Of a stretch of 9,560 bases of DNA, positions 3,118 to 7,332 are shown piece after piece (position 1 is the stretch's first letter; each line of letters opens with the position of its first letter). The translations under genes and the position numbers were made by a program. The notes under the pieces were generated by a model. The model saw nothing but the letters and a program-made list of their open reading frames with translations. It was not told the origin of the DNA and did not search any database. The stretch comes from a bacterium. Its GTDB lineage: Bacteria; Bacteroidota; Bacteroidia; Bacteroidales; Bacteroidaceae. Location: NCBI GenBank assembly GCA_004562975.1, contig SFQP01000037.1, positions 1 to 9,560 of the forward strand, written 5' to 3'.

Positions 3118-4263
3118 ATGAGAAAACTCTTTACTCTTTTGGCTTTGGGCGCAACGGTGCTCACAGCCAATGCTCAGAAGTCTGTACAAGGTTCCAATTT
3201 CTTTGACAACTGGTCAGTAGGTGTGATGGGCGGTACCATCATCCCCACCAAGAACAATGACATTCCGGATGACTTCCGTGCCACCTACGGCGTGGAACTG
3301 AGCAAGCAGATTACGCCCGTCTGGGGTATGACGGCTCAGGTGATGGCTACGAACAACGTCACTGCTAGCCCCACCTTGATCGATGCCGCCACCGTCCACG
3401 CCTTGGGACGCATCAACGTGAACAACCTCTTCTGGGGTTACAAAGGCAGCCCCCGTCCGTTCGAGGTGGAAGTGGCCTTCGGCATGGGCTATGGCCGTAA
3501 CTTCTACACCGGCAATAAGGGCGATGATGACTACATCACTGCCAAAGGCGGCCTGAACCTGAACTTCAACCTGGGCGAAGAGAAAGCCTGGACGGTATCA
3601 CTGCGCCCGGCTATCGTGGTGGCCCAGGAAAACGTGGCCGCCAACACGGGTGCATTCATGAAACTGGACAACAGCGACCTGGAACTGACAGCCGCACTCG
3701 TGTACCACTTCAATAACAAGAGCAACGGCAAACGCTACATGACGTACATCCGCGCCTATGACCAGGCTGAGGTGGACGGACTGAACGCCCAAATCAATGA
3801 CCTCCGCGCTGAATTGGAAGGCAAGAAGGCTGAGGTGGCCCGCGAAACCGCACAGGTGCGCAGCCTGCAGAACCAGCTGAACGACTGCCGCAACCGTAAG
3901 CCGGTGGTAGAGAAGGAAATCATCACAAGCAGCACCAAGTCGCTCGAACAGACCGTGACCTTCCGTCAGGGCAAGAACACCGTGGACGCTGCACAGCTGC
4001 CTAACGTGGAACGCGTGGCTACTTTCCTCAAGAACCACAAGAACGCTACCGTCACCATCAAGGGTTATGCCTCTCCCGAAGGCAGTGCCGAAATCAACGA
4101 ACGCATTGCCAAGGAACGCGCCGAGGCTGTGAAGACAATCCTCGTTGAGAAGTACAACATCTCCGCCAAGCGCATCACGGCCGAAGGTCAGGGCGTTGGC
4201 AACATGTTCAGCGAACCGGACTGGAATCGCGTGAGCATCTGCACCATCGTAGAGGCTGAATAA
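3118..4263 (+). CDS. OmpA-family outer membrane protein
   Basis: A 381-residue outer membrane protein that links the outer membrane to peptidoglycan. Residues 1-19 are a signal peptide (cut after ANA, before Q20). About 22-200 form a beta-barrel-like part with alternating strands and frequent Gly and aromatic residues. About 215-257 are a Glu/Ala/Leu/Gln-rich coiled coil. About 275-381 are an OmpA C-terminal domain (GYASPEGSAEINERIAKERA, then AEGQGVGN and DWNRVSICTI). The family's Arg that contacts diaminopimelate is kept (R334), but the usual Asp partner in GY-x-D is Ser319. The frame is open upstream to 3019, but the ATG at 3118 is chosen because it gives a clean signal peptide and lies after the promoter. 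It is a single-gene unit with its own promoter and terminator and is probably strongly expressed. Confidence 0.93.
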   Translation: MRKLFTLLALGATVLTANAQKSVQGSNFFDNWSVGVMGGTIIPTKNNDIPDDFRATYGVELSKQITPVWGMTAQVMATNNVTASPTLIDAATVHALGRINVNNLFWGYKGSPRPFEVEVAFGMGYGRNFYTGNKGDDDYITAKGGLNLNFNLGEEKAWTVSLRPAIVVAQENVAANTGAFMKLDNSDLELTAALVYHFNNKSNGKRYMTYIRAYDQAEVDGLNAQINDLRAELEGKKAEVARETAQVRSLQNQLNDCRNRKPVVEKEIITSSTKSLEQTVTFRQGKNTVDAAQLPNVERVATFLKNHKNATVTIKGYASPEGSAEINERIAKERAEAVKTILVEKYNISAKRITAEGQGVGNMFSEPDWNRVSICTIVEAE

Positions 4264-4322
4264 TCCTGCCTATTGACACGGGCGACACGGCACTGCCGCC
4301 GTCCGTCTCTCCCTCACAACAA

Positions 4323-4364
4323 GCGCAGCTTTGGACTTTCACATTCCAAGGCTGCGCCTTTTTT
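4323..4364 (+). terminator. Intrinsic terminator of the OmpA-like gene
   Basis: A 13-bp stem (4323-4335 with 4345-4357, one G-U pair) and a 9-base loop are followed by six T residues (4359-4364). It lies 60 bases after the ompA-like stop codon and is a classical intrinsic terminator. Confidence 0.9.
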
Positions 4365-4664
4365 ATGCCGCCAATTCTCTTTCTCACCAAAAACGGACGG
4401 GAAGCTGCGAGCCGTGCATGAAGCCTTACAGATTGCCATTGTGCAGTCTGTCTGCATTTCGCTTAGCGTGAATAGTGGAATTTTGTTGCACCAACTATTA
4501 TCTAACCCTCAAAATCCCCGATTTCATCGCATATTTTACGCTTGGACATGGCATCCCAAAAGCATCTAAACAGGAAGCCGACCGGAATGCCGCAGCCATC
4601 AGAACGGCTGGACTGATGGTGTCCGTTGGCCTCTGCTATATACGTAAAATTTCCCGTTTTTGGG
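4365..4664. other. Intergenic stretch, no gene seen
   Basis: I find no convincing gene, RNA or promoter here. An ORF of 86 codons starts at 4475 but has no recognisable motif, no good promoter, and runs into the repeat cluster. The piece around 4576-4635, read as KQEADRNAAAIRTAGLMVSV, looks slightly protein-like and could be a decayed gene fragment, but this is weak. Confidence 0.4.
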
Positions 4665-4665
4665 G

Positions 4666-4946
4666 TTCACCCCTTCACAAAACAGGCGTTTCCGCCTCAT
4701 TCTCAGACATTCTGTGTGTGAAGGCTTGGGGTTGAAAGCATTCACCGAGGGTTCACAGGCTTCACCGCCCTGCCGAAGCGTTACTTGCGGAGAGACTACA
4801 AATTACTAATGGGGTAACGGAGATCAGCTGGAGTGGTGAACGGTCTGTGAATGCTTCACCGCCTGTGTGAATGCTTTGAAGCCTAAGCCTTCACACATAA
4901 AACCACTGAAAATCAACAAGAAACAATCATTTGGTGAAAGGGTGAA
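4666..4946. repeat. Cluster of TTCAC/GTGAA words
   Basis: The pentamer TTCAC or its complement GTGAA occurs 13 times in 281 bases: TTCAC at 4666, 4674, 4741, 4752, 4761, 4855 and 4890; GTGAA at 4718, 4836, 4847, 4867, 4934 and 4942. Chance predicts fewer than one. Many sit in longer words such as GCTTCACCGCC and CTGTGAA. No protein frame explains them. They could be binding sites or the trace of a mobile element. Confidence 0.7.
4715..4897. repeat. Pair of 31-bp imperfect inverted repeats
   Basis: The left arm at 4715-4745 (starting TGTGTGAAGGCTT) and the right arm at 4867-4897 (ending AAGCCTTCACACA) are inverted copies that match at 28 of 31 positions. They enclose 121 bases. I see no target-site duplication next to the arms and no transposase ORF, so a MITE is possible but not shown. 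A transcript could fold into a long hairpin with an inner domain. Confidence 0.7.
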
Positions 4947-5045
4947 CACTAAAAAAGGGGAAAAACACGTATATATGCGCACGAAAAATTTGTATTTGTC
5001 TACCTCAAATCGGAACGGAAGTTTCTTTCCACACTCAACTACCCA

Positions 5046-5192
5046 CAAGTCGGTGACTTGATGTTTCAACTCGGCGACTGGTCTTAGCAACTCGGCGACT
5101 TGTTCCCACAAGTCCTGGACTATTTTTTTCTAATCGGCGACTTGAAAAAACAAATCAGGGAGTTGTAACAACAGGACGGGGAGTTGTGAAAA
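5046..5192. repeat. Seven tandem 21-bp units with 15-bp core
   Basis: Cores begin at 5046, 5067, 5088, 5109, 5130, 5151 and 5172, an exact 21-bp period. The core consensus is CAAnTCGGcGACTTG, followed by 6 variable bases. Positions 1, 6, 10, 11 and 13 are identical in all seven. The first core is a perfect inverted repeat (CAAGTC, GGT, GACTTG); the later ones are less symmetric and decay towards the right. Read on the plus strand, most cores give Q-[VLI]-G-[DE]-L, a heptad pattern, but stops fall in the frame after units 2, 6 and 7. So it is either a set of helically phased protein-binding sites or a decayed heptad-coding repeat. Confidence 0.85.
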
Positions 5193-5195
5193 CCA

Positions 5196-5378
5196 ATGGT
5201 GGGAGTATCCAGAATGACGGTTCTGCAATGGAGAGCCAACGGAAAACCGGCAAGACGACTGAAAGGCATATCGGTTTCTTTACCATTCCGATATGTAAAT
5301 GCGAACAGGAAAAAGATCCGAATGACCACGGAAAAGAAATCGGAACAGGATGCCTATGGCGGTTTTACAGAAGGGTAA
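5196..5378 (+). CDS. Possible small HTH-like protein or remnant
   Basis: A 60-residue ORF in the same frame as the 21-bp array, starting just after its last stop codon. The first part (GVSRMTVLQWRANGK) resembles the recognition end of small helix-turn-helix or excisionase-like proteins (pattern VSrxTvxxWrxxGk); the rest is basic (RYVNANRKKIRM, then TTEKK). I do not recognise a family, there is no good promoter upstream, and the likeness may be chance. It could be the relic of a regulator from a lost mobile element. Treat it as a weak candidate. Confidence 0.2.
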   Translation: MVGVSRMTVLQWRANGKPARRLKGISVSLPFRYVNANRKKIRMTTEKKSEQDAYGGFTEG

Positions 5379-5383
5379 ACCAA

Positions 5384-5491
5384 CCAATAAATTAATGGAG
5401 GCTACCGTCTCTACGGGCCTCCATTAACCAACACAAAAACTAAACTAGACTTAACTAAACTATTTGATAGCGTTATCTCCCGACAACTAAG
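5384..5491 (-). ncRNA. Candidate small RNA of about 105 nt
   Basis: A good minus-strand promoter (5497-5528) points left into a region with no gene, and about 65 bases further a strong hairpin (5392-5427) followed by a U-rich run (UUUAUU) would end the transcript. The 5' part of the RNA has a near-palindromic GATAACGCTATC, then two copies of UAGUUUAGUU separated by 5 bases, a likely single-stranded segment, and then the hairpin. No open reading frame of note lies inside. I do not recognise the family; it sits just after aroC and could also be made by processing of aroC mRNA. Confidence 0.4.
5392..5427 (-). terminator. Hairpin ending the candidate small RNA
   Basis: An 11-bp perfect outer stem (5392-5402 with 5417-5427) continues, after a 2-base bulge, into a 4-bp inner stem (5405-5408 with 5413-5416) with loop CTCT. 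On the minus strand it is followed by UUUAUU, which suits termination of leftward transcripts; the plus side has no T run. Confidence 0.55.
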
Positions 5492-5496
5492 TGTTG

Positions 5497-5528
5497 CAAA
5501 TATAGGGCTTACTTGGAAGTAATGCAAG
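5497..5528 (-). promoter_or_regulatory. Leftward promoter downstream of aroC
   Basis: On the minus strand, a perfect -7 box TATATTTG (5497-5504) and CTTG (5525-5528) are 20 bases apart, the same layout as at the DUF3467 promoter. No minus-strand protein gene follows for more than 2 kb, so its product is most simply the candidate small RNA. Confidence 0.5.
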
Positions 5529-5562
5529 AAATTGCGAACTTTTCTTTACAAAACCCTGTTTT

Positions 5563-6636
5563 TTAACATTTACGAGTGTTATTAAGCATCAAATTGTCCG
5601 CAACAACCATGGCTGACATGGCTTCGACGATGGGTACGGCACGCGGCAACACGCAGGGGTCGTGCCGGCCCCGGGCCTTGAGCGTGATGGGTTGGCCGCC
5701 AGCCGTTACGGTTTGCTGCTCACGCAGGAGTGTGGCAACCGGCTTGAAAGCTACCCTGAAGTAGATGGGGCGGCCATTGCTAAGCCCTCCCTGGATGCCG
5801 CCGCTGTGGTTGGTGAGGGTGGTGATGCCCTCGGCTGATGGGACGAACAGGTCGTTCTGCTCGCTTCCACGGGATGTGACACCTGCAAAGCCTTCGCCAT
5901 ACTCAAAACCCTTGACGGCATTGATGCTGAGCATGGCAGCTCCCAAACTGGCATGCAACTTGCCGAAAACAGGCTCGCCCAAACCTACCGGACAACCTTC
6001 AATGACGCAAGTGATGATGCCGCCGATGGTATCGCCCTCGGCCTTGACCTGAGCGATGTACGCTGCCATCTCCTCGGCTTTGGCAGGGTCGGGACAACGC
6101 ACGGGATTTTGCTCGATGCGGCCGAAATCGTAATGTTCCCAACTTTCAGTGAGTGCTATGGGGCCGACCTGGGAGGTATAGGCGGTGATGCGGATTCCAT
6201 AGGGACGCAGAAACATCTTGGCAAAAGCTCCTCCCACGACACGGGCCACGGTTTCACGGGCCGAGGTGCGGCCGCCACCGGTATGGTCGCGCCAACCGTA
6301 TTTGGTCTGGTAGGTGAAGTCGGCGTGCGAGGGGCGGAATACGTCGCGCAGGTTGTCGTAGTCGGACGAATGCTGGTTTTCATTGCGCACCAAAAAGCCG
6401 ATGGGACAGCCCGTGGTGCGTCCTTCAAAAACACCTGAAAGCAGCTCTACACGGTCGGACTCCTTGCGAGCCGTGGTGAGAGCACTCTGACCGGGGCGGC
6501 GACGGTCAAGCTCTGACTGGAGGAAATCGGCATCGACCGTGATGCCGGCGGGCATTCCATCGATAACACCACCAATGCCGGGACCATGGCTTTCTCCAAA
6601 GGTAGTCAAACGGAATAGTTGACCGAAGGTGTTCAT
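5563..6636 (-). CDS. aroC: Chorismate synthase
   Basis: A full-length (357 residues) cytoplasmic enzyme for the last step of the shikimate pathway: it converts 5-enolpyruvylshikimate 3-phosphate to chorismate with loss of phosphate, using reduced FMN as a catalyst that is not consumed. The family signatures are present: [16 protein letters not shown] (14-29) with H17; RRRPGQ (45-50); RPSHADFTY with H104; [18 protein letters not shown] (120-137); and [20 protein letters not shown] (321-340). H17 and H104 correspond to the two catalytic His residues. The ATG at 6636 gives the standard N-terminus. It starts 18 bases after the slyD stop, so the two are probably co-transcribed. It needs a flavin reductase from elsewhere; no other shikimate gene is in the window. 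Confidence 0.97.
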
Positions 6637-6654: not shown

Positions 6655-7332
6655 TTATGCTTCATGTGTTCCGTGATGTCCGCAGCAGCATCCGTCGCCG
6701 TGGCCTCCTTCGTGTCCGTGGTGGTGACCGCAACAGCCTTCCGCGTGCTCTTCGCCATGACCGTGATGTCCACAACCGCAGTCGCTGCCACCACAGTCGC
6801 CGCCACAATCGTCGCAACCGCATCCACAACCTTCACCACTCAACATATTGATGAAACCTTGGATTTCTTCATTGGTAGCGTCGCGCAAGGTTACGACTGT
6901 TCCCTTGAAATGCAGGGCCTTGCCAGCCAAGGGGTGGTTGAGGTCAATGACTACGGTCTGGTCTTTTACTTCAAGTACCAGTCCCTGGAAACGGTTGCCG
7001 TCTGTATTGACCAAAGGAAGAACTGCACCCGGATAGATCATGTCACGGTCGAAATGCCCATTGACGCTGAATTTTTCTTTCTCCAACTCGAGCACGTGTT
7101 CTTCTTCATAGGCTCCGTAGGCTTCTTCTTCTGTCAATACGAAGTCGAAGGACTCGCCTACGCTGTGACTCAGGATTTGCTCTTCAAAGCGTTCAAGGGT
7201 TACGCCCATACCGGAAATGAACTGATAGGGATGTTCTACCGGGGCTTTCTCTACCATCTCGTGAACGCCTTGTTCGTTATCGACATACAACTCGTAGGCT
7301 ACAGTTACGTACTTGTGGGAAATCTGTTCCAT
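6655..7332 (-). CDS. slyD: SlyD-like FKBP prolyl isomerase with metal-binding tail
   Basis: A 225-residue cytoplasmic peptidyl-prolyl cis-trans isomerase and chaperone. The FKBP core is split, as in SlyD: residues 5-72, an insert-in-flap chaperone domain (about 73-128, opening AYGAYEEEHV), and the return to the core with LNHPLAGKALHF (131-142). Residues 166-225 form a low-complexity tail with 12 Cys and 12 His: a Cys-rich first half (CGCGCDDC type) and a His-rich second half (GHHHGH type). In E. coli SlyD a similar tail binds nickel and helps hydrogenase maturation. No nickel enzyme lies nearby, so the client metal is unknown; zinc or copper buffering is also possible. The gene is 63 bases after dnaX and 18 bases before aroC. 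A long ORF on the other strand is only a mirror of this gene. Confidence 0.92.
   Translation of the reverse strand: MEQISHKYVTVAYELYVDNEQGVHEMVEKAPVEHPYQFISGMGVTLERFEEQILSHSVGESFDFVLTEEEAYGAYEEEHVLELEKEKFSVNGHFDRDMIYPGAVLPLVNTDGNRFQGLVLEVKDQTVVIDLNHPLAGKALHFKGTVVTLRDATNEEIQGFINMLSGEGCGCGCDDCGGDCGGSDCGCGHHGHGEEHAEGCCGHHHGHEGGHGDGCCCGHHGTHEA

What the first reader, a model, noticed from the sequence alone, without database searches (positions are those of the whole stretch)
5046..5192. Seven near-palindromic 15-bp cores at an exact 21-bp period
The cores (CAAnTCGGcGACTTG) repeat with no slippage for seven units while the 6-base spacers are unrelated. A 21-bp step is two helical turns, so all cores lie on one face of DNA, as in iterons or operator arrays, and core 1 is a perfect inverted repeat. 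A rival reading: 21 bp is also seven codons. In the plus frame the variable core positions 4, 9 and 12 change mostly V/L/I, silent Gly, and D/E, which looks like coding constraint for a heptad QVGDLxx. Stops after units 2, 6 and 7 would then mean decay. Either way I know no named system with this array.
Basis: partly seen in the sequence, partly recalled or inferred. Interest (0 to 1): 0.75.

Follow-up and report, generated by a model that had tools for sequence, protein, structure and literature searches.

The report
Helically phased palindrome array between genes
The window carries seven near-palindromic 15-letter DNA boxes spaced exactly two turns of the helix apart, a worn member of a widespread and apparently undescribed class of between-gene arrays in Prevotella-like bacteria that looks like a set of docking sites for an unknown DNA-binding protein.

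Summary
The array is real: seven 15-bp cores at an exact 21-bp step (5046-5186); its score is 260 against a maximum of 175 in 300 shuffles. It is very unlikely to be coding: the heptad frame has three stops, and sister arrays have a 22-bp step. The window's core pair recurs in 4 of 58 congeneric genomes. It belongs to a larger class. In Bacteroidales stretches not picked for the motif, 49 of 103 intergenic tandem arrays (period 13-40) have a period of 21 or 22, against 2 at 20 and 4 at 23; E. coli gave none in 200 kb. Units are often near-palindromic and the motif is specific to a genome or small clade. In congener G456, 26 of 28 TTCTCNNCGCGNNGAGAA arrays span four units and 82 of 83 steps are 22 bp; flanks are unrelated and gene orientation does not matter. 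Its degenerate inner positions pair less than chance, so hairpins are not what is selected. Best reading: dyads on one DNA face, bound side by side by an unidentified protein. Main rival: a MITE-like minisatellite, true for copies in G448 and one G453 locus, not for 78 other arrays tested.

The parts
5046..5186 (+). Array of seven near-palindromic 15-bp cores, consensus CAANTCGGCGACTTG, exact 21-bp step
5046..5060 (+). Unit 1 CAAGTCGGTGACTTG, 6 of 7 self-complementary pairs
5067..5081 (+). Unit 2 CAACTCGGCGACTGG, 5 of 7 pairs
5088..5102 (+). Unit 3 CAACTCGGCGACTTG, 6 of 7 pairs
5109..5123 (+). Unit 4 CAAGTCCTGGACTAT, 5 of 7 pairs; variant core AGTCCTGGACT, close to variants in G453, G448 and G001
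5130..5144 (+). Unit 5 CTAATCGGCGACTTG, 5 of 7 pairs
5151..5165 (+). Unit 6 CAAATCAGGGAGTTG, 5 of 7 pairs
5172..5186 (+). Unit 7 CAGGACGGGGAGTTG, 3 of 7 pairs, degenerate edge unit
5386..5494 (-). Neighbour, not part of the array: sRNA gene like Bacteroides BTnc049 (RF04179) between aroC and the array
   Evidence: 65.5 bits, E 1.9e-11, below the gathering score 81.9; its 18-nt signature found in 26 of 32 sequences downstream of aroC, L001 and L219 being the same locus
5563..6636 (-). Neighbour: aroC (chorismate synthase), convergent with the OmpA-family gene; array about 371 bp beyond its end
   Evidence: (PF01264)
3118..4263 (+). Neighbour: OmpA-family outer-membrane protein gene

Best explanation
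The array is a partly worn member of a class of intergenic, helically phased dyad arrays in Prevotellaceae-like Bacteroidales. Shown: a step of 21 or 22 bp (two B-DNA turns) shared by arrays with unrelated motifs, frequent near-palindromy of the units, lineage-specific motifs dispersed over a genome, intergenic position, and in G456 nearly always four units. Inferred: each unit is a double-stranded binding site for a dimer of a sequence-specific protein; two-turn spacing places the dimers side by side on one face so that a small oligomer binds cooperatively or wraps about 85 bp. Because copies lie beside genes in all orientations, I infer a chromosome-wide role (domain organisation, bridging or a roadblock) rather than control of single operons. 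The motif and its recogniser would change together between species.
For: Period: in stretches not picked for the motif, 49 of 103 intergenic arrays of period 13-40 are 21 (19) or 22 (30), against 2 at 20, 4 at 23, 8 at 13 and 9 at 14. With picked stretches 108 of 165. E. coli K-12, 200 kb (about 28 kb intergenic): none. Dyads: over seven sets 61 of 115 arrays of period 20-23 reach p<=0.05 under column permutation, against 6 of 30 at periods 16-19 and 24-40; by set 16/28, 4/8, 0/17 (G001), 33/50, 1/1, 3/7, 4/4. Window array z 3.8. G456: 26 of 28 arrays span four units (25 with all four seen), 82 of 83 steps are 22; contexts tandem 16, convergent 5, divergent 4, edge 3, against 103, 28, 20 for all gaps of 120 bp or more. 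Unit arms 1.4-2.0 bits per base (helped by the motif search that found them), flanks mostly 0-0.5. Inner pairs, not part of that search, are complementary in 41 and 38 of 104 units where 55.6 and 52.6 are expected. G001, 39 distinct arrays: steps 21 or 22 in 76 of 77 same-orientation neighbours, all 29 orientation switches in one sense (one array seen twice removed). Orthologous array G453/G447: 71 of 85 identical (80 of 105 over five units), flanks 75 of 157 and 29 of 73; neighbours are homologous. Window motif pairs in 4 of 58 congeners, reversed-pattern control 0.
Against: No recogniser was identified. Motif change within one genus is faster than I would expect for a conserved regulator. 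In G001 the single units are oriented rather than palindromic: 0 of 17 arrays pass the unit dyad test. The closest congener by aroC, G459, has 1 array of 21-22 bp among 20 in 300 kb, so the feature is dispensable. In G448 (4 of 4 copies tested) and at one G453 locus the array sits inside long inverted arms, as in a mobile element. Copies in G456 are slightly more alike than shuffles (best pair 35 of 42 variable columns, null mean of the best 32.9, largest 36), and direct repeats of 5 or more at their edges are twice as common as in a mismatched null (8 of 28 v 80 of 560). The synteny test found no co-occurring arrays: 717 shared gaps without, 3 with on one side only. The window's own genome is not held, so the number of copies in this species is unknown.
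Confidence: 0.5

Rival explanations
1. The arrays are minisatellites in or derived from non-autonomous mobile elements (MITE-like, as BrickBuilt of Porphyromonas gingivalis); they spread selfishly and have no cellular role.
For: In G448 the array is the centre of a dispersed element of about 420 bp, 5 copies aligned, with long inverted arms in 4 of 4 copies tested, and the same at G453 L205 (arms 121 nt, 82% complementary). A 339-bp element with 114-nt inverted arms (73%) lies 70 bp from the window array. Some G001 arrays share ~300-bp flanks. Motif families differ between congeners. Edge direct repeats of 5 or more in 8 of 28 G456 arrays against 80 of 560 in the null.
Against: No inverted arms beside 32 G001, 26 G456 and 20 other dyad arrays, nor beside the window and G447 arrays. 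No near-identical copies in G456: best pair 81 of 90. Conservation is confined to the array. Four-unit span in 26 of 28. G447 has the orthologous array without arms.
Confidence: 0.3
2. RNA-level or single-strand hairpins: the arrays act as terminators or as structured RNA.
For: The window array folds better than shuffles on both strands (z -3.1 and -4.5); G001 arrays run as a left block then an inverted right block, giving long stems.
Against: Inner pairs in G456 are less complementary than chance. Gene context is neutral in G456 and only mildly convergent in G001 (10 of 32 arrays with two neighbours, against 33 of 188 gaps). None of 3 terminator-like sites in 4250-5600 falls in the window array. 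A two-turn step is not needed for RNA. No Rfam match.
Confidence: 0.12
3. Mutational by-product: palindromes promote slippage that yields two-turn duplications; no function.
For: Some arrays are plain minisatellites of near-identical units (L018, 9 units), and edge units are degenerate in G001.
Against: Near-fixed four units in G456, units within an array differing, and the same motif at many loci.
Confidence: 0.12
4. Decayed coding repeat for a heptad coiled coil (QVGDLxx).
For: 21 bp is seven codons; the arrays in G447 and G453 are open in one frame (QIAELEK-like) and a weak 141-bp ORF is called over the G453 array.
Against: Stops in the window, upstream parts that differ, no ATG before the array in the G447 frame, weak or negative hexamer scores, and sister arrays at a 22-bp step.
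Confidence: 0.03

Closest known systems
BrickBuilt minisatellite/MITE of Porphyromonas gingivalis (PMC4596501; abstract, section 5 and search passages read)
   Same: Same order (recalled); dispersed intergenic tandem arrays with a near two-turn unit (23 nt), genome-specific motif, conserved and variable sites within the unit.
   Different: BrickBuilt has 1 to 22.8 repeats, and leader and tail with inverted ends. Here the step is mostly 21 or 22, units are often near-palindromic, number is often about four, and most arrays tested have no arms.
REP/REPIN elements with RAYT transposases (recalled; for PMC3116915 and PMC3733652 only the title and start of the abstract were seen, in listings)
   Same: Short palindromic units, dispersed, intergenic, genome-specific.
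   Different: Strict 21/22-bp step; Y1 transposase family not found in G001, which has 167 unit pairs, nor in G453.
Two-turn operator pairs such as ARG boxes bound by ArgR (recalled)
   Same: Palindromes of about 15-18 bp, about 21 bp apart, one DNA face.
   Different: Many loci per genome, about four boxes, orientation-neutral. One ArgR in each of six congeners, also where arrays are almost absent.
Plasmid iterons (recalled)
   Same: Direct repeats spaced about two turns.
   Different: Setting beside aroC, dnaX and an OmpA-family gene, no Rep gene found in the window, many loci per genome in congeners, palindromic units.

Membership tests
BrickBuilt MITE | 23-nt tandem unit | tested here: not met
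   Window step 21; G456 step 22
BrickBuilt MITE | Leader and tail with inverted ends around the array | tested here: not met
   no inverted arms for window, G447, 0 of 32 G001, 0 of 26 G456, 0 of 20 other dyad arrays; present for 4 of 4 G448 copies and G453 L205. BrickBuilt's own leader and tail sequences were not searched for
BrickBuilt MITE | Expansion and contraction of unit number between strains | not testable with these tools
   One genome per species held; window genome not held
REP/REPIN-RAYT | Y1-type RAYT transposase in the genome | tested here: not met
   PF01797: none in G001 and G453, 1 in G448, 1 in G459, 3 in G397. Completeness of these assemblies is not given; the window's genome could not be tested
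REP/REPIN-RAYT | GTAG or CGTC tag at one end | not tested
   No formal test made
Operator array of an oligomeric repressor | Dyad boxes two turns apart on one face | tested here: met
Operator array of an oligomeric repressor | A known binder of the boxes | tested here: inconclusive
   Only ArgR was checked: one in each of 6 genomes whatever the motif or array number
Iteron origin | Adjacent replication initiator gene | tested here: not met
   Twelve window ORFs scanned against Pfam: OmpA, Metallophos, DUF3467, FKBP, chorismate synthase, DnaX-type clamp loader, or no hit; no plasmid Rep
Coding heptad repeat | Open frame kept in relatives with coding signal | tested here: not met
   (open inside the array in two congeners, coding signal weak or negative)
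Known structured RNA | Rfam match | tested here: not met
   none at E<=1 in 4960-5260; none at gathering score in the window

The most novel reading that the evidence does not exclude
Many Prevotellaceae-like genomes carry a chromosome-wide set of roughly four-box, two-turn-phased binding stations whose palindromic code is rewritten from species to species together with an unknown protein: a fast-evolving, possibly chromosome-organising recognition system with no known counterpart.
Probability: 0.33. Interest if true: 0.92.

Novelty: new variant of a known kind. Interest (0 to 1): 0.72.

Why it matters
Arrays with an almost fixed number of dyads at two helical turns (6 in the first 100 kb of G456 looked at), with a motif that changes between congeners, imply a trans-acting factor that is both chromosome-wide and fast-evolving. 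I know of nothing like it in Bacteroidota. It can be tested at once in cultured Segatella or Prevotella. If it turns out to be mobile instead, it would define a large family of elements beyond BrickBuilt.

Tried and rejected
Core-pair searches in a 393-genome sample of the order (up to 2 mismatches, 0 of 393) and in viral contigs (exact, 0), and blastn in plasmids and phages (only chance-level short matches) found nothing; the motif is lineage-specific. RAYT transposition was tested and not supported. ArgR as binder was checked and not supported. A sequence-independent test of inverted-repeat spacing gave peaks at 20-22 and 42 in L002-L080 but little in the single genomes. A first dyad test on unit consensuses was blunt (3 of 24 intergenic arrays of 21-22 bp significant) and was replaced by the column-permutation test on whole arrays. 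Conserved position in the genome could not be shown. Downstream of aroC, arrays of 21-23 bp occur 250-490 bp away in several congeners with different motifs (window, L001/L219, L242, L226, L216), one of 26 bp (L214) and one at 1228 bp (L218), but only the window and L242 pass the dyad test, so this is only suggestive. Literature: searches showed no description of such arrays in titles and abstract starts except BrickBuilt; most subscription papers are not in that library.

Rows dropped before counts: arrays with strong self-similarity at periods 1-11, overlapping weaker periods, and arrays mostly inside called genes. Stretches of G001 (L163-L181), G456 (part of L284-L303), G443 and G448/G453/G447 (L194-L200, L205, L211) were picked because they hold the motif; one search repeats the period count without them. 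In one search the window and L001 arrays were added by hand.

Full report
What is there. Seven 15-bp cores with consensus CAANTCGGCGACTTG lie at 5046-5186, each exactly 21 bp after the last, with 6-bp spacers that show no common sequence. The block scores 260 in a column-pair count where 300 dinucleotide shuffles of the window reach at most 175. Six of seven cores have 5 or 6 of 7 self-complementary pairs; 1.7% of all 15-mers of the window reach 5. The seventh is worn. The array lies in the 1.3-kb gap between an OmpA-family gene and aroC (PF01264), which point at each other. Between array and aroC is an sRNA gene like BTnc049.

Relatives. The window's own assembly is not held. The aroC scan gave 80 loci of Bacteroidales; the nearest, L001, lies in genome G001. 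In the genus of G001 (58 genomes; it also holds G003 and G002, whose records are titled Alloprevotella sp. and Prevotellaceae bacterium), a pair of window-type cores with up to 3 mismatches occurs in 4 genomes: G447, G448, G453 and, weakly, G439. The reversed pattern occurs in none. G447 has five CAAATCGCCGAGTTG-type units, G453 a mixture of TCGGCGA and GTCCAGGAC types as in the window. The G447 and G453 arrays lie between homologous neighbours (82, 76 and 92% identical). Aligned, the array is 71 of 85 identical (80 of 105 over five units), the flanks 75 of 157 and 29 of 73. This is one pair of sequences, and gene conversion could also do it.

A class, not a single case. A scan for ungapped tandem arrays of period 13-40 in intergenic DNA (at least 32 of 45 positions matching, simple repeats removed) gave 43 in loci L002-L080: 17 at 22, 8 at 21, 2 at 23, 1 at 20. 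Arrays of period 20-23 occur in 24 of these 79 loci, and in 15 of 79 they pass the dyad test. In all stretches that were not picked for a motif, 49 of 103 arrays are 21 or 22: 25 of 43 (L002-L080), 7 of 13 (S. copri G397), 3 of 7 (G001), 11 of 11 (G456, 100 kb), 1 of 20 (G459), 2 of 9 (G448, G453, G447). Including picked stretches it is 108 of 165. E. coli K-12 gave none in four 50-kb stretches; that is one species and about 28 kb of intergenic DNA. The dyad test (column permutation, p<=0.05) is passed by 61 of 115 arrays of period 20-23 and 6 of 30 of periods 16-19 and 24-40 (sum of its seven sets). An earlier run gave 16 of 29 intergenic and 3 of 7 coding arrays of 20-23, 2 of 16 other intergenic arrays and 2 of 30 other coding arrays of period 16 or more. 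An isolate genome (Segatella copri, G397) shows such arrays as well, so they are not artefacts of metagenome assembly.

One genome, one or a few motifs. In G001 the pair AGCTCAGGACT-N10-AGCTCAGGACT occurs 167 times with up to 2 mismatches, the reversed pattern never, and in none of the 57 other congeners. In 553 kb I found 39 distinct arrays (one search lists 40, one of them twice, in L001 and L173). Without the duplicate, neighbouring units of one orientation are 21 (66) or 22 (10) apart, once 48. All 29 orientation changes run from the left block to its inverse, never the other way. In S. copri two motifs recur, GCACAACAGCTGTTGTGC often at a 22- or 44-bp step. In G456 a pair of TTCTCNNCGCGNNGAGAA occurs 235 times with up to 3 mismatches, the reversed pattern never; G443 has three pairs and the other 56 genomes none.

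Architecture in G456. In 474 kb there are 28 such arrays: 26 span four units (in one of them an inner unit is missing), one three, one five; 82 of 83 steps are 22 bp and one is 44. Units were found by motif and end units added in phase, which favours the 22-bp step at the ends. In the first 100 kb, not picked for the motif, 6 of 6 arrays have exactly four units, all 22 apart. They lie between genes without clear preference for orientation: 16 tandem, 5 convergent, 4 divergent and 3 at contig edges, against 103, 28 and 20 for all gaps of 120 bp or more. The arms carry 1.4-2.0 bits per base, in part because the search asked for them; flanks fall mostly to 0-0.5, apart from the adjoining base (1.1) and one position (0.8). 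The two inner degenerate pairs, which the search left free, are complementary in 41 and 38 of 104 units where shuffling predicts 55.6 (sd 4.3) and 52.6 (sd 3.9). Selection for hairpins would give an excess; here there is a deficit. At variable columns, copies are only slightly more alike than shuffled ones (mean 26.0 v 25.25; best 35 v 32.9, largest 36). So these look like old sites, not recent copies of one another. The same genome holds further families at 21 and 22 bp.

What it most likely does. Shown: geometry, frequent symmetry, dispersal, near-fixed number in one genome. Inferred: binding of a dimeric protein to each dyad, side by side on one face of the helix because of the two-turn step. 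Indifference to gene orientation argues against promoters and terminators and for a chromosome-wide role. I give this about 0.5. The window array is a degenerate, longer member of the class, and I cannot say how many such arrays its species has.

The case for mobility. In G448 the array is the middle of a dispersed element of about 420 bp (5 copies aligned) with long inverted arms (4 of 4 tested copies), and one G453 array has 121-nt arms. Beside the window array lies a separate element with 114-nt inverted arms (4637-4975). In G456, direct repeats of 5 or more at array edges are twice as common as in a mismatched null (8 of 28 v 80 of 560), which I did not follow up. But inverted arms are absent around 32 G001, 26 G456 and 20 other dyad arrays, the G447 array and the window array itself. 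I read the G448 and G453 cases as arrays caught in mobile elements, or elements built on them. The opposite order, arrays as remnants of such elements, is the main rival (0.3).

Other rivals. RNA: the array folds better than shuffles on both strands, but any array of mutually complementary units should, and the inner-pair deficit and context in G456 speak against it. Coding: stops in the window, weak or negative coding signal in congeners, 22-bp sisters. RAYT-driven REPINs: no Y1 transposase in G001 or G453. ArgR: one copy in each of six congeners regardless of arrays.

Against my reading. No binder is known. G001 units are oriented more than palindromic (0 of 17 arrays pass the unit dyad test). 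G459, the nearest by aroC (84%), has 1 array of 21-22 bp among 20 in 300 kb, so whatever the arrays do is dispensable or lineage-bound. Position is not shown to be conserved beyond G447/G453. Gene calls come from my own simple hexamer caller, so context counts are approximate.

Known relatives. BrickBuilt of P. gingivalis (PMC4596501; abstract, section 5 and passages) is the closest described thing. Its 23-nt unit, very variable repeat number and leader/tail differ. Of PMC5771137 I saw search passages only. Ten literature searches (listed under tried and rejected) showed no other description.

Noticed in passing
window 5386-5494 (-): Full-length match to the Bacteroides sRNA BTnc049 (RF04179), below the gathering score; an 18-nt stretch is nearly invariant in 26 of 32 sequences downstream of aroC (one locus twice), followed by a terminator-like stem that varies between species.
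   Followed up: partly
window 4637-4975: MITE-like element: 114-nt inverted arms, 73% complementary, ends like TATACGTA; similar arms occur in G453 (L205 12536-12990) and G448.
   Followed up: partly
L285:2433, L289:2991, L293:3210, L300:2538 (G456): Second array family in G456 at a 21-bp step with AGAT...ATCT dyads, besides the 22-bp TTCTC family; L292:2320 looks like a third (GTATCC..GGATAC type, 22 bp), as does L242 downstream of aroC.
   Followed up: partly
L109, L163, L176, L181 (G001): Some G001 arrays adjoin a repeated ~300-bp sequence with a strong GGCGTCCGAAAAA...TTTTTCGGACGCC stem.
   Followed up: partly
L018 10213-10444: Nine-unit 22-bp array (unit AGAAACTGAAAAGTTCTGCAGC) directly downstream of aroC; an ordinary-looking minisatellite with near-identical units.
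   Followed up: no
G001 contig ends (L104, L109, L111 and others): 7 of 39 arrays lie next to a contig or stretch end, so these repeats may break short-read assemblies.
   Followed up: no
window 6655-7332 (-): FKBP-type isomerase gene with a long His/Cys/Gly-rich tail; the tail's repeats in relatives probably explain several coding 21-bp tandem hits just upstream of aroC (inference).
   Followed up: no
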